Positions 43,082 to 46,889 of a stretch of 64,000 bases of DNA are shown in pieces. A program made the position numbers and the translations under genes. This stretch comes from Candidatus Latescibacterota bacterium (GTDB lineage Bacteria > Latescibacterota > UBA2968 > UBA8231): NCBI GenBank assembly GCA_022820485.1, contig JAJEFJ010000034.1:1-64000 (forward strand), written 5' to 3'. The notes under the pieces are model-generated. The model ran no database searches and was not told the origin of the DNA. It saw only the letters and a program-made list of their open reading frames with translations. Numbering within the stretch: the first letter of the stretch is position 1; each line of letters opens with the position of its first letter.

Positions 43082-44095
43082 ATGTCCAACGGGGCCACAA
43101 ACGCCCTCCTGCAAGTGCGAGGGTTAAAAAAGCACTTTCCCGTACACCGGGGGCTTTTACAGCGACAAACGGGTTGGGTAAAGGCCGTGGATGGCGTGAG
43201 CTTCTCGCTCGCCCAAGGCAAAATTTTGGGGCTGGTCGGCGAGAGCGGCTGCGGCAAGACCACCACCGGGCGGATGATTCTCCGCGCCCTAGACCCGACC
43301 GCCGGAGAAATCCTCTTTCGGCAACAGGATGGTCAGGTCGTCGATATGGCCCAACTCGGCCGCCGCGAAGTCGTCCAAGCGCGCCGGCAGATGCAAATGA
43401 TCTTCCAAGACCCGTACTCGTCCCTAAATCCGCGAATGCCCGTGCGCGACCTAATCGCCGAACCGCTCCGGTCTTATGGCTGGTCGGCGCGCGACAGCCA
43501 CGAGCGAGTGGGCGATCTGATGGAGCGAGTAGGGCTAGACCCCAGATACGCGCGCCGCTATCCGCACGCCTTCTCCGGCGGCCAGCGACAGCGCATCGGC
43601 ATTGCCCGCGCCTTGGCCTTGAGCCCGTCGCTCATCGTCGCCGACGAGCCGGTCTCCGCACTCGACGTCAGCGTGCAAGCGCAGATTCTCAACTTGCTCC
43701 GCCAATTGCAGACTGACCTTGACCTCACTTTGCTCTTTATCGCCCACGACCTGAGCGTAGTGCGCTATCTCTGCGATGAAGTGGCCGTCATGTACCAAGG
43801 CCGAATCGTCGAACAGGCCGCAACCGAAACCCTCTTTACCCAACCACAGCACCCCTATACGGCCATGTTGCTAGAGGCCGCGCCCGCACCCGACCCCCAC
43901 GCCTCGTGGATGGAAGAAGACGAAGACGCCAGCGAGGCGGGCGAACCAACGCCGGCCGACGACCAAGGATGCGCGTTCGCACCGCGCTGCCGCTACAAAA
44001 GCGACCTGTGCAGCCAGCAGATGCCCGCGCTGGAGGGCGAGTCGCATCTGGCCGCCTGCCACCACAAAGACGAGTTAGACCTGCACGGCGTGTAG
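43082..44095 (+). CDS. Oligopeptide ABC transporter ATPase, DppF type
   Basis: 337 aa from ATG 43082 ([12 protein letters not shown]), placed by GGAGGGG upstream; the longer open frame is a shadow of dppD. The N-terminus [33 protein letters not shown] is typical of DppF/OppF. Walker [10 protein letters not shown], signature [15 protein letters not shown], Walker [17 protein letters not shown] and H-loop IAHDLS are all present, with the Cys-bearing C-terminal tail [15 protein letters not shown]. It completes the transporter. Confidence 0.93.
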
Positions 44096-44109
44096 CGATA
44101 GGAACAGAG

Positions 44110-44138
44110 TTGACCAAATAAGTAAACCAACCTATATT
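44110..44138 (+). promoter_or_regulatory. Promoter of the HTH-methyltransferase gene
   Basis: TTGACC (44110-44115), 17 nt, TATATT (44133-44138): near-consensus. TGACC at 44111 and GGTCA at 44146 form a possible wide inverted repeat for autoregulation by the protein's own HTH domain. Confidence 0.6.
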
Positions 44139-44177
44139 ACGCGAAGGTCATCCACCCTCATGGAGGAGAACGTCTGT

Positions 44178-45431
44178 ATGGTCCAGTTTGGGGATCACCT
44201 GCGGCAAACTCGCCTCGAAAGCGGATTGACCCAAGCCGATGTCGCAAACCGCCTTGGGGTCTCGAAAGGGTACATCTCCCGCCTCGAAAGTGGCAAGGCC
44301 CGACCCGCCGAAGCGACAGTCCGACGTCTAGCCCAAATCTGTGAGACCGATCCTGATCCGCTCCTCATCTTGGCCGATTACCTGCCCTCCGACCTTCGAG
44401 AAATTCTATCGCAGCACCCAGCCGAGGCGTCGGCGATGCTGCGTGGCACCTTTGGGCGTACCACTCACCAGCAAAATGCGCCTCCCGCTGTCGCCGAGTC
44501 CCAAGTCCTCTACCAGCCTAGCGAAGCCTCATATCAAATCGTCCAAGAGGATTGCTTCGCGTGGATGGAGCATCGCCCCCCCAACAGCGTCCACGCCATC
44601 GTCACCGACCCACCCTACGGCCTGAAAGAGTACACCACTCAAGAAAAGGACAAACTCCGGCGCGGACGGGGTGGCGTCTGGCGCATCCCACCAGCTTTGG
44701 ACGGCTGCGTCCGCCAGCCCCTACCTCGGTTTACCGTCCTCAGTAACGGCGATAAGCAGCAGCTTGCTGCGTTCTTTGGACAATGGGGCGAGCGGGCATT
44801 GCGAGTGCTCGTGCCGGGGGGGCACGTTTTTATTGCCGCCAACCCTCTGCTGTCGCATCTAGTCTATGCCGCCCTCGTCGAAAGCGGATTTGAGAAACGC
44901 GGCGAGATCATCCGCCTAGTACAGACGCTGCGGGGCGGCGACCGTCCCAAGAATGCACACGACGAATTTGCGGACGTCACCGTTATGCCTCGCTCCGGTT
45001 GGGAGCCTTGGGGTCTGTTTCGCAAGCCGTGTGAGGGCCGCGTGCAGGACAACCTACGCGAGTGGAAAACGGGCGGACTGAGGCGGATCAGTGCCGAGCG
45101 CCCTTTCGGCGACGTCATCCGCAGTGCGCCCACTCGGCCAGCGGAACGCGACATTGCGCCGCATCCCTCTCTCAAGCCGCAGAGCTTTATGCGCCAGATC
45201 GTGCGCGCAGCTCTGCCGCTGGGCGAGGGGATAGTGCTCGACCCTTTCATGGGCGGGGGTTCGACCATCGCCGCCGCGTGTGCCGTAGGCTATGAGAGTA
45301 TTGGCATTGAAAGCGACCCCGCGTTTTTCGAGACCGCAAAAGCCGCAATTCCGCAATTGGCCACGCTGGAGGTCAACGGAGAGAGCAAGCTGGTTCCGAA
45401 AGCAGGGAAACAGCCGAGCTTGTTCGGCTGA
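44178..45431 (+). CDS. XRE-HTH / DNA N4- or N6-methyltransferase fusion
   Basis: 417 aa from ATG 44178 (MVQFGDHLRQ), 10 nt behind GGAGGAG; an ATG six codons earlier overlaps that ribosome site. Residues 4-66 are an XRE/Cro-type helix-turn-helix (LTQADVANRLGVSKGYISRLESGKARP). After a linker, DPPYG at 144-148 is motif IV, HPSLKP at 329-334 replaces the common HPTQKP, and LDPFMGGGST at 354-363 is motif I. Motif IV before motif I is the beta-class order. The HTH could let the enzyme control its own promoter, as in HTH-bearing cytosine methyltransferases. The convergent neighbour carries a nuclease-like domain, so this is probably the modification half of a restriction system. Confidence 0.85.
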   Translation: MVQFGDHLRQTRLESGLTQADVANRLGVSKGYISRLESGKARPAEATVRRLAQICETDPDPLLILADYLPSDLREILSQHPAEASAMLRGTFGRTTHQQNAPPAVAESQVLYQPSEASYQIVQEDCFAWMEHRPPNSVHAIVTDPPYGLKEYTTQEKDKLRRGRGGVWRIPPALDGCVRQPLPRFTVLSNGDKQQLAAFFGQWGERALRVLVPGGHVFIAANPLLSHLVYAALVESGFEKRGEIIRLVQTLRGGDRPKNAHDEFADVTVMPRSGWEPWGLFRKPCEGRVQDNLREWKTGGLRRISAERPFGDVIRSAPTRPAERDIAPHPSLKPQSFMRQIVRAALPLGEGIVLDPFMGGGSTIAAACAVGYESIGIESDPAFFETAKAAIPQLATLEVNGESKLVPKAGKQPSLFG

Positions 45432-45437
45432 AGACGC

Positions 45438-46889
45438 TTATGCTTCAGCTAGGATGGAGCGATGGCGACCGACGCCGACGCCGGGTAGCCGGTAGATAAA
45501 ATTGTTCCGCAGCTTCTCGACACCAGTCTTAGTTATTGATGCTGTGGGCGTCCGGCGCGAATCACCGGTGCGGCCTGAGAATGACCAATCCGCTTCGTCG
45601 AGCTTGGCGCAGAGAATTTCGAGAAATGTCAGCGGCGTAGAAGTCCCTTCTTCCTGCTCGCCAATCGCATAGCGAAATACCATTAGCCAACCGTCCTCTG
45701 GGTTGTGTCCCTGCCAGCCACCGCTTTGAATGGACGACTTGATTTCGATACCCTCGTCCCCTTTTAACACTATATTCGATGCGTAATGGCCTTTCGGCAG
45801 CAGGTCGGGATGCCCTCCTACCTTCGCATTCGCCTCCAGCGTTTCGGCAGCGCGGGCGATATTTTTTACGAGGAACTCGGAAATCATGCCGGACAGCGAG
45901 TTACCCAGCAGTAATTCTTCCAATGGACGGAAGCCGCTGCTTTCGAGGAAGTCGTTCAATCCGTGAAAAAGTCGGTACGTCTCCGCCACCGCCTGTTCTA
46001 TTTCTTCTACTTTGAGTCCGTAGGGAAGGACGATACGACGATTCACGTAGCGGGGGTCAAGCGTCCCCGAATCGTCGTTCCTCGCCGTGCGATAGGGGGC
46101 AGGATCAAATCCCGGATACCGCGTCGCCATCCCCGCAATAAATTCTTCCGTCCACAGCGCGTCACCCGGCGGCGGGAAGCCGAGCAGTTCGCGCTGGCGC
46201 GGGGTGGCTTCAGCCATGAAGCGATTCATGGCCGCACCTTGAGCACCACTCTTATACGTGAAGGTGCGACCGCCGTCCCAAGGGCGGTCCTTGCGAGTGA
46301 AGCCCACCCACATGACCGGGCGGTGTCCCGCTGGCGCGGTAAAATCGGAGGCAGCGTGGCGGGTGAAGACGCTGTAGAGGCACACCGAGCCACCGGGGAC
46401 GATCATCGGCACGGCTTCCGCGTCGGAGTGGCCCTTGGGCACCATGCGGATCGGGGCCATCCCTTCCTCGACGTCGTCGAAGCAGTAGAAACAGACCAAA
46501 TTCATAAAGTCGTCTGGCTCAATGATCGGCCCCAGCGTGTTGTTGCCGTAGTCGATGTGGAAATTGGTTCCGTATTCCTCGCCGGCGTATTTCATGCCTA
46601 GATGGCCCTCGCAGAGCCGAATCGCGCGCGTACCCAAGACGCGCTCGGCCGCGTCAATCAGGTCGGGATGAACGGTGACGTGATTGAGGCCGGAGTGGTC
46701 CCAAGGGAAGAGTCTTTGCTGAGGGGTGTCGTTGCGGCGGTCGTTGGCTAGGTATTGGTCGTAGGGCGGGGCAAAATGGGTGAAGAAGCCATCGAGCGCG
46801 GCTTGCTGCTCGTCTTTAGTAAGGAAGTTCTCGACGATCAGGAAGCCTTGTTCTTTGTACGTAGCAAGTTGGGCGTCGGTGATGTGCAT
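45438..46889 (-). CDS. Phytanoyl-CoA dioxygenase-like domain fused to a PD-(D/E)xK nuclease-like domain
   Basis: 483 aa in one unbroken frame. Residues 1 to about 270 are a PhyH-type Fe(II)/2-oxoglutarate dioxygenase: HID at 111-113 for iron, a distal His near 178, and GHRPVMW with the 2-oxoglutarate Arg. Residues about 281-483 do not belong to that family. GHPDLLPKG (Asp362) followed 20 residues later by IEIKSS (Glu382, Lys384) is a PD-(D/E)xK nuclease signature, and QSGGWQGHNPEDGW and WSFSGRTGDSRRT look like a type II restriction enzyme. An in-frame GTG at codon 282 (46046) could have been, or may still be, the start of a separate nuclease. Its stop is 6 nt from the end of the convergent methyltransferase gene. 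Confidence 0.75.
   Translation of the reverse strand: MHITDAQLATYKEQGFLIVENFLTKDEQQAALDGFFTHFAPPYDQYLANDRRNDTPQQRLFPWDHSGLNHVTVHPDLIDAAERVLGTRAIRLCEGHLGMKYAGEEYGTNFHIDYGNNTLGPIIEPDDFMNLVCFYCFDDVEEGMAPIRMVPKGHSDAEAVPMIVPGGSVCLYSVFTRHAASDFTAPAGHRPVMWVGFTRKDRPWDGGRTFTYKSGAQGAAMNRFMAEATPRQRELLGFPPPGDALWTEEFIAGMATRYPGFDPAPYRTARNDDSGTLDPRYVNRRIVLPYGLKVEEIEQAVAETYRLFHGLNDFLESSGFRPLEELLLGNSLSGMISEFLVKNIARAAETLEANAKVGGHPDLLPKGHYASNIVLKGDEGIEIKSSIQSGGWQGHNPEDGWLMVFRYAIGEQEEGTSTPLTFLEILCAKLDEADWSFSGRTGDSRRTPTASITKTGVEKLRNNFIYRLPGVGVGRHRSILAEA

What the first reader, a model, noticed from the sequence alone, without database searches (positions are those of the whole stretch)
44110..46889. Restriction-modification unit whose nuclease domain is fused to a phytanoyl-CoA dioxygenase
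Seen: one 483-codon frame reads PhyH dioxygenase motifs (HID 111-113) and then, after about residue 280, a segment with Asp362...Glu382-x-Lys384 spaced like a PD-(D/E)xK nuclease. Six nt past its stop ends a convergent XRE-HTH/beta-class methyltransferase gene (DPPYG, LDPFMGGGST). Known: methyltransferase and restriction nuclease genes usually sit together. Inference: the nuclease gene lost its own start region and was captured by the 3' end of a metabolic gene, or an in-frame GTG at 46046 still makes a separate nuclease. I know of no described dioxygenase-restriction enzyme fusion.
Basis: partly seen in the sequence, partly recalled or inferred. Interest (0 to 1): 0.85.

Follow-up and report, generated by a model that had tools for sequence, protein, structure and literature searches.

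The report
Restriction enzyme fused onto metabolic gene
A small mobile DNA-cutting defence unit landed at the very end of a bacterial metabolic gene and lost the cutter's own start signal, so the cutter can now be made only as a tail of the metabolic enzyme or from a weak internal start.

Summary
In detail: one 483-codon frame (45438-46889, -) joins a PhyH-type oxygenase (residues 1-270) to a PD-(D/E)xK nuclease (residues ~276-483), convergent with an XRE-HTH/beta-class methyltransferase gene. The nuclease is a widespread stand-alone family (48 genome loci plus plasmids), beside a convergent methyltransferase in 48 of 52 inspected loci; its model resembles NaeI and EcoRV. Six same-genus genomes have an empty site, where phyH stops after about codon 270 and the ABC-transporter gene follows directly. 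So a ~2-kb type II restriction-modification unit inserted there. Stand-alone relatives start 11 codons before the GTG at 46046; in the window that codon is AAC, where most empty alleles carry the phyH stop. The nuclease's start codon and ribosome-binding site are gone, yet its reading frame stays under purifying selection. A congener (G007) has the same insertion with one C fewer, which ends PhyH at a TGA overlapping that GTG: coupling instead of fusion. Scars show an earlier copy of the unit elsewhere in this genome. I infer that restriction is expressed through phyH, as fusion or by reinitiation. No product or activity was measured, and the fusion is seen in one genome and rests on a homopolymer.

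The parts
46080..46889 (-). PhyH-type 2OG-Fe(II) oxygenase part, residues 1-270 (H111, D113, H178, R190)
   Evidence: 93-97% identical to phyH of same-genus genomes, where it is a separate gene of about 271 codons; PDB 8xp6 E 1.9e-21
45438..46079 (-). nuclease part, residues 271-483 plus stop; recognisable homology from residue ~276 (46064)
   Evidence: 48 stand-alone homologous loci, alignment, AlphaFold2 model pLDDT 88, NaeI/EcoRV fold
45738..45806 (-). PD-(D/E)xK catalytic motif: D362 (45804-45806), E382 (45744-45746), K384 (45738-45740)
   Evidence: all three invariant in 43 homologues
46044..46046 (-). in-frame GTG (V282), the only near internal start candidate upstream of codon 301; in G007 it overlaps the phyH stop as GTGA
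46077..46079 (-). codon 271 (AAC): position of the start codon in stand-alone nuclease genes and of the phyH stop in most empty alleles; the left junction of the insertion
44160..45431 (+). XRE-HTH (residues 9-67) fused to beta-class DNA methyltransferase (DPPYG, then DPFMGGGST); the real start may be ATG 44178
   Evidence: Pfam HTH_31 and N6_N4_Mtase; PADLOC MTase_II PDLC03215 E 3.4e-117; in G004 the reading upstream of M7 is interrupted by a stop
44109..44127 (+). imperfect palindrome GTTGACCAAATAAGTAAAC overlapping the -35 hexamer of the methyltransferase promoter; presumed operator of the HTH domain
   Evidence: GTTNACN7GTNAAC lies upstream of the methyltransferase gene in 13 of 13 HTH-bearing loci and in no locus without the HTH; 0.02 expected per window
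44110..44138 (+). sigma70-like promoter TTGACC-N17-TATATT of the methyltransferase gene
   Evidence: sequence; the G007 copy reads TTGACC-N17-TATAAT
44099..46061 (.). the inserted R-M unit as defined by DNA similarity to G004 (89% over 1965 columns); empty-site flanks resume at 44095/44096 and end at 46081-46105

Best explanation
A minimal type II restriction-modification unit (HTH-methyltransferase gene with its own promoter and operator, plus a convergent EcoRV/NaeI-like PD-(D/E)xK endonuclease gene, about 2 kb, no mobility gene) inserted in the few bases between two convergent host genes, phyH and an oligopeptide-type ABC-transporter ATPase gene. The left junction fell on the phyH stop codon and on the endonuclease's first codons, so both the phyH stop and the endonuclease's start codon and Shine-Dalgarno sequence were lost and one frame now runs through both (shown by sequence comparison). 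The methyltransferase gene still has its own promoter. The endonuclease has no start of its own except a poorly placed GTG and depends on phyH transcription and translation: mainly as a 483-residue PhyH-nuclease polypeptide whose C-terminal domain dimerises and cuts unmethylated DNA, with a possible minor product from GTG 46046 (inferred). In the sister allele of G007 one base fewer turns the same arrangement into a GTGA stop-start overlap, i.e. coupling (shown as sequence, function inferred).
For: Empty sites in six same-genus genomes with phyH and ABC genes adjacent, and the same insertion with the same junction sequence in G007, a one-contig genome, so not an assembly chimera. Native start 11 codons upstream of the V282 position in 12 of the 13 close homologues listed other than G007, most with a good Shine-Dalgarno match (-5 to -13 kcal/mol in 9 of them), against -3.0 for GTG 46046. 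The C-run CCCCC in the window keeps the homologous LDPRYVNRR frame, so the fused frame looks like the older state. Catalytic residues intact. On the window branch the nuclease has 19 synonymous and 8 nonsynonymous codon changes, P 9e-7 against a neutral 3:1 expectation; the methyltransferase has 26 and 5: both are still used. PhyH dN/dS against relatives is 0.04-0.11. No second copy of the nuclease in the genome: only a scar at another site.
Against: No transcript, protein or methylation data. The fusion occurs in one genome and depends on five rather than four C in a run; an assembly error would make it a coupled pair as in G007. Initiation at GTG cannot be excluded by sequence. The 20 residues N-terminal of the nuclease are ordered in the model, so a PhyH tail might hinder the fold, dimerisation or DNA access.
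Confidence: 0.72

Rival explanations
1. The fused frame is incidental: ribosomes make PhyH-nuclease only as a by-product or not at all, and the active endonuclease comes from reinitiation or internal initiation at GTG 46046, as the GTGA overlap of the G007 allele suggests.
For: G007 has the same insertion with PhyH ending at TGA overlapping this GTG, and its nuclease shows the same constraint (19 synonymous, 7 nonsynonymous).
Against: Weak Shine-Dalgarno match; starting at V282 drops the conserved LDPRY segment, which is ordered in the model; no stop codon lies near the GTG in the window, so stop-start coupling cannot act there.
Confidence: 0.25
2. Sequencing or assembly error: the true window allele has CCCC like G007 and there is no fusion, only two overlapping genes.
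For: The difference is one base in a homopolymer; the genome is a 107-contig assembly.
Against: Five C keep the reading frame homologous to stand-alone nucleases (LDPRYVNRR), four C do not; so if one of the two alleles is wrong, the G007 one is the likelier.
Confidence: 0.12
3. The nuclease is a dying remnant: it lost its start and is no longer made, and the methyltransferase is becoming an orphan, as has happened at the other site in G008.
For: G008 retains an intact methyltransferase with only the first ~35 nuclease residues at site 2; patchy distribution, 6 of 47 genomes of the class.
Against: No stop or frameshift in 203 codons, all catalytic residues kept, excess of synonymous changes on the window branch.
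Confidence: 0.12
4. A selected bifunctional enzyme in which oxygenase and nuclease act together on DNA.
For: Both domains have intact active sites.
Against: The same PhyH exists in relatives without any R-M neighbour, and the nuclease family exists everywhere without PhyH; the fusion is unique to one genome.
Confidence: 0.04

Closest known systems
Type II restriction-modification pairs with PD-(D/E)xK endonucleases of the EcoRV/NaeI fold group
   Same: Invariant PD-x19-E-x-K, Foldseek match to NaeI (E 7e-4, prob 1.00) and EcoRV (prob 0.96), adjacent beta-class methyltransferase.
   Different: No sequence relative among solved structures, Pfam or NCBIfam; only a weak match to PADLOC REase_II PDLC03564 (E 3e-8 at best, 40 of 41 members). 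Here the endonuclease is fused behind a host enzyme.
[quoted passage not shown]
   Same: Complete minimal unit, site-specific occupied/empty alleles, scars of a former copy elsewhere.
   Different: Insertion removed both a host stop codon and the endonuclease start, giving an in-frame host-endonuclease fusion; no target duplication was found.
EcoKI M-S fusion made by removing the frameshift between hsdM and hsdS (PMC3510504)
   Same: A one-nucleotide overlap with coupled translation versus one fused frame; the fused state was functional.
   Different: Laboratory mutant within one Type I system; here natural alleles, and the partner is a metabolic gene.
R-M systems regulated by an HTH in the methyltransferase (M.SsoII, PMC3978073) or by a C protein (C.PvuII, PMC2997769)
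   Same: HTH with a palindromic site at the methyltransferase promoter, suggesting autoregulation.
   Different: SsoII is a C5 enzyme; here a beta-class amino-methyltransferase with XRE HTH. No separate C gene. The operator GTTNACN7GTNAAC lies only at the methyltransferase promoter.

Membership tests
Type II restriction-modification system | DNA methyltransferase with catalytic and SAM motifs | tested here: met
   N6_N4_Mtase 65.6 bits, PADLOC MTase_II E 3.4e-117; DPPYG and DPFMGGGST present
Type II restriction-modification system | separate endonuclease with a nuclease fold and catalytic residues | tested here: met
   D/E/K invariant in 43 sequences; NaeI/EcoRV-like model. In the window it is not separate but fused.
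Type II restriction-modification system | conserved linkage of the two genes | tested here: met
   convergent methyltransferase beside the nuclease in 48 of 52 loci; two of the four others are cut by contig ends
Type II restriction-modification system | cleaves DNA at a site that the methyltransferase protects | not testable with these tools
   no activity or methylome data; recognition site unknown
PhyH / 2OG-Fe(II) oxygenase | HxD...H iron ligands and 2OG-binding arginine | tested here: met
   H111, D113, H178, R190 invariant in 16 relatives
PhyH / 2OG-Fe(II) oxygenase | Pfam PF05721 above gathering score | tested here: not met
   20.2 bits against 22; match to 8xp6 2OG-Fe(II) oxygenase E 1.9e-21. 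Divergent member; phytanoyl-CoA as substrate is not implied.
C-protein-controlled R-M system | separate small C gene upstream of the endonuclease gene | tested here: not met
   HTH is fused to the methyltransferase, and no HTH gene lies upstream of the nuclease
Conserved domain fusion (selected bifunctional protein) | fusion present in several lineages | tested here: not met
   one genome only; the only other occupied allele is split by one base

The most novel reading that the evidence does not exclude
The PhyH-endonuclease fusion is the sole and working restriction enzyme of this bacterium, so that phage restriction is tied to expression of a metabolic oxygenase, and the two natural alleles (fusion, GTGA overlap) are two solutions to rescuing an endonuclease that lost its start on insertion.
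Probability: 0.35. Interest if true: 0.68.

Novelty: new variant of a known kind. Interest (0 to 1): 0.52.

Why it matters
New R-M units must delay the cutter until the genome is methylated. Here the insertion itself destroyed the cutter's start signals and hung it on a host gene, which gives low, host-controlled expression without any regulator. Two natural alleles one nucleotide apart (fusion, GTGA overlap) and several empty alleles in one genus make a direct test of how mobile defence genes are domesticated. It also adds an endonuclease family absent from Pfam and NCBIfam, and a conserved methyltransferase operator.

Tried and rejected
Pfam, NCBIfam, PHROGs and PDB sequence searches for the nuclease part found nothing usable; phages gave no match. 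A combined PhyH plus nuclease alignment for folding the whole fusion misaligned, so the fusion was not modelled as a whole. Searches failed for a frame slip of one base. Assembly chimera rejected: G007 has the same insertion in a single-contig genome. The methyltransferase dN/dS against G004 is an artefact of a stop at codon 2 and was redone from codon 7. A claim of one clade for the two phyH-site copies was not kept: the methyltransferase tree is poorly supported. The recognition site and m4C versus m6A could not be assigned. Direct papers on a PhyH-restriction fusion: none found.

Full report
What is there. The frame at 45438-46889 (-) is 483 codons, ATG to TAA. Residues 1-270 are a PhyH-type oxygenase: 93-97% identical to phyH of same-genus genomes, related to a solved 2OG-Fe(II) oxygenase (8xp6, E 1.9e-21), with H111, D113, H178 and R190 invariant; the Pfam PhyH score is just below the cut-off. 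Residues ~276-483 match 48 loci in 48 contigs from many phyla at 35-93% identity (the hosts are named in the record titles: Latescibacteria, Nitrospinae, Desulfobacterota, Planctomycetes, Chloroflexi, cyanobacteria and others) and 21 plasmids. In 43 aligned members the P, D, E and K of GHPDL...GIEIK are invariant. In 48 of 52 loci a methyltransferase gene converges on the nuclease gene.

The nuclease. A 41-sequence alignment gave a confident AlphaFold2 model (pLDDT 88, pTM 0.86). Against solved structures the best matches are NaeI (E 7e-4, probability 1.00) and EcoRV (E 6e-3, probability 0.96), with NlaIV, SfiI and BglI lower; TM-scores are low (0.3-0.44), so this is fold-level kinship. Forty of 41 members weakly hit one PADLOC type II endonuclease model (best E 3e-8). 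The family is absent from Pfam and NCBIfam.

The insertion. In G001, G002, G003, G004, G008 and G010 phyH ends after about codon 270 and the ABC-transporter gene, convergent, follows within about 4-14 bases; window DNA from ~44097 to ~46081 is absent. G007, a one-contig genome (OY282352.1), has the same unit at the same place with the same junction sequence, 90% identical throughout. G004 (OX638377.1) has the unit elsewhere. At that second site G000, G001 and G007 carry short scars of the unit and G008 carries an intact methyltransferase with only the first ~35 nuclease residues. In the window's genome the scar reads the last codons of the nuclease and the end of the methyltransferase gene. 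So the unit once sat at site 2, was deleted there, and survives in this genome only behind phyH. The flank tree puts the window genome next to G008, whose phyH site is empty, so the occupied phyH allele was either exchanged between lineages or lost in G008; I cannot tell which.

The lost start. Among the 13 close homologues listed apart from G007, 12 have an ATG, GTG or TTG exactly 11 codons before the position of V282, giving proteins that begin M-x-R-P-T-x-L-D-x-R-Y-V-N-R, most with a clear Shine-Dalgarno sequence. In the window that codon is 271, AAC, next to PhyH's R270; in most empty alleles codon 271 is the TAA stop. Thus the stop of phyH and the start of the nuclease were lost at one point. 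What remains is GTG 46046 (V282) with a weak upstream match (-3.0 kcal/mol). In G007 one C fewer (CCCC for CCCCC) makes PhyH end in TGA, overlapping this GTG as GTGA.

Selection. Polarised by G004 and G007, the window branch of the nuclease has 19 synonymous and 8 nonsynonymous codon changes and the methyltransferase 26 and 5; against a neutral three-to-one expectation P is 9e-7 and 1e-11. PhyH is also constrained (dN/dS 0.04-0.11 against relatives). Since the insertion is shared with G007 the window branch should lie after the insertion, so the nuclease has been in use after losing its start; this rests on the topology.

Control of the methyltransferase. An imperfect palindrome GTTNAC-N7-GTNAAC overlaps the -35 hexamer of a TTGACC-N17-TATATT promoter (44109-44138). 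It occurs in front of the methyltransferase gene in 13 of 13 fetched relatives whose methyltransferase carries the XRE-HTH and in none of the loci lacking it; 0.02 matches are expected in the whole window by chance and one is found. The likely reading is autoregulation by the HTH domain (inference).

Mechanism. Shown: insertion, loss of both signals, open fused frame, intact catalytic residues, constraint. Inferred: the methyltransferase is made from its own autoregulated promoter, the nuclease only from phyH mRNA as a fusion or by initiation at GTG, and the pair acts as ordinary type II restriction-modification. A fused frame replacing a coupled overlap is functional in EcoKI (PMC3510504), and R-M units that move without any mobile element are known (PMC3874152). 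Translational coupling cannot be assumed: it was tested and not found for overlapping pvuIIC/pvuIIR (PMC2997769).

Limits. The fusion is one allele in one assembled genome. No REBASE comparison, recognition site or experiment was possible.

Noticed in passing
window 44109-44127; L026-L034, L036-L038, L057: Conserved operator-like palindrome GTTNACN7GTNAAC overlapping the -35 of every XRE-HTH-methyltransferase gene of this family found, absent where the HTH is absent.
   Followed up: yes
L090 and L093 (G008, contig C58): Orphan methyltransferase: the unit at site 2 has lost all but the first ~35 residues of the nuclease while the methyltransferase stays intact, a case of an orphan arising by decay in place.
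   Followed up: partly
L089/L095 (G000 C60:40408-40517): Scar of a former copy of the same R-M unit in the window's own genome: about 100 bp with the 3' ends of the two convergent genes.
   Followed up: yes
L057 (JAPLUO010000198.1): A nuclease of the distant subfamily (37% identity) beside a methyltransferase of the close HTH subfamily (72% in the catalytic part): apparent swap of partners.
   Followed up: no
L083 (G027), L085 (Psychrobacter plasmid pA15BP4): Distant nuclease relatives of about 300 aa with an N-terminal XRE-HTH, in L085 beside a C5-cytosine methyltransferase: here the HTH sits on the nuclease instead of the methyltransferase.
   Followed up: partly
L081 (G023 C14): A 31%-identical nuclease gene directly behind the 3' end of a co-oriented amidohydrolase gene, with a convergent methyltransferase gene: another unit placed behind a metabolic gene. 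In G004 (L026) the nuclease also starts nine bases after a co-oriented gene.
   Followed up: no
L028-L031, 30-45 bases upstream of the nuclease start: Shared motif TTAGCCGACCA (TTTAGCCGACCA in L028) upstream of stand-alone nuclease genes; may be a unit end or a regulatory site. Absent from the window.
   Followed up: no
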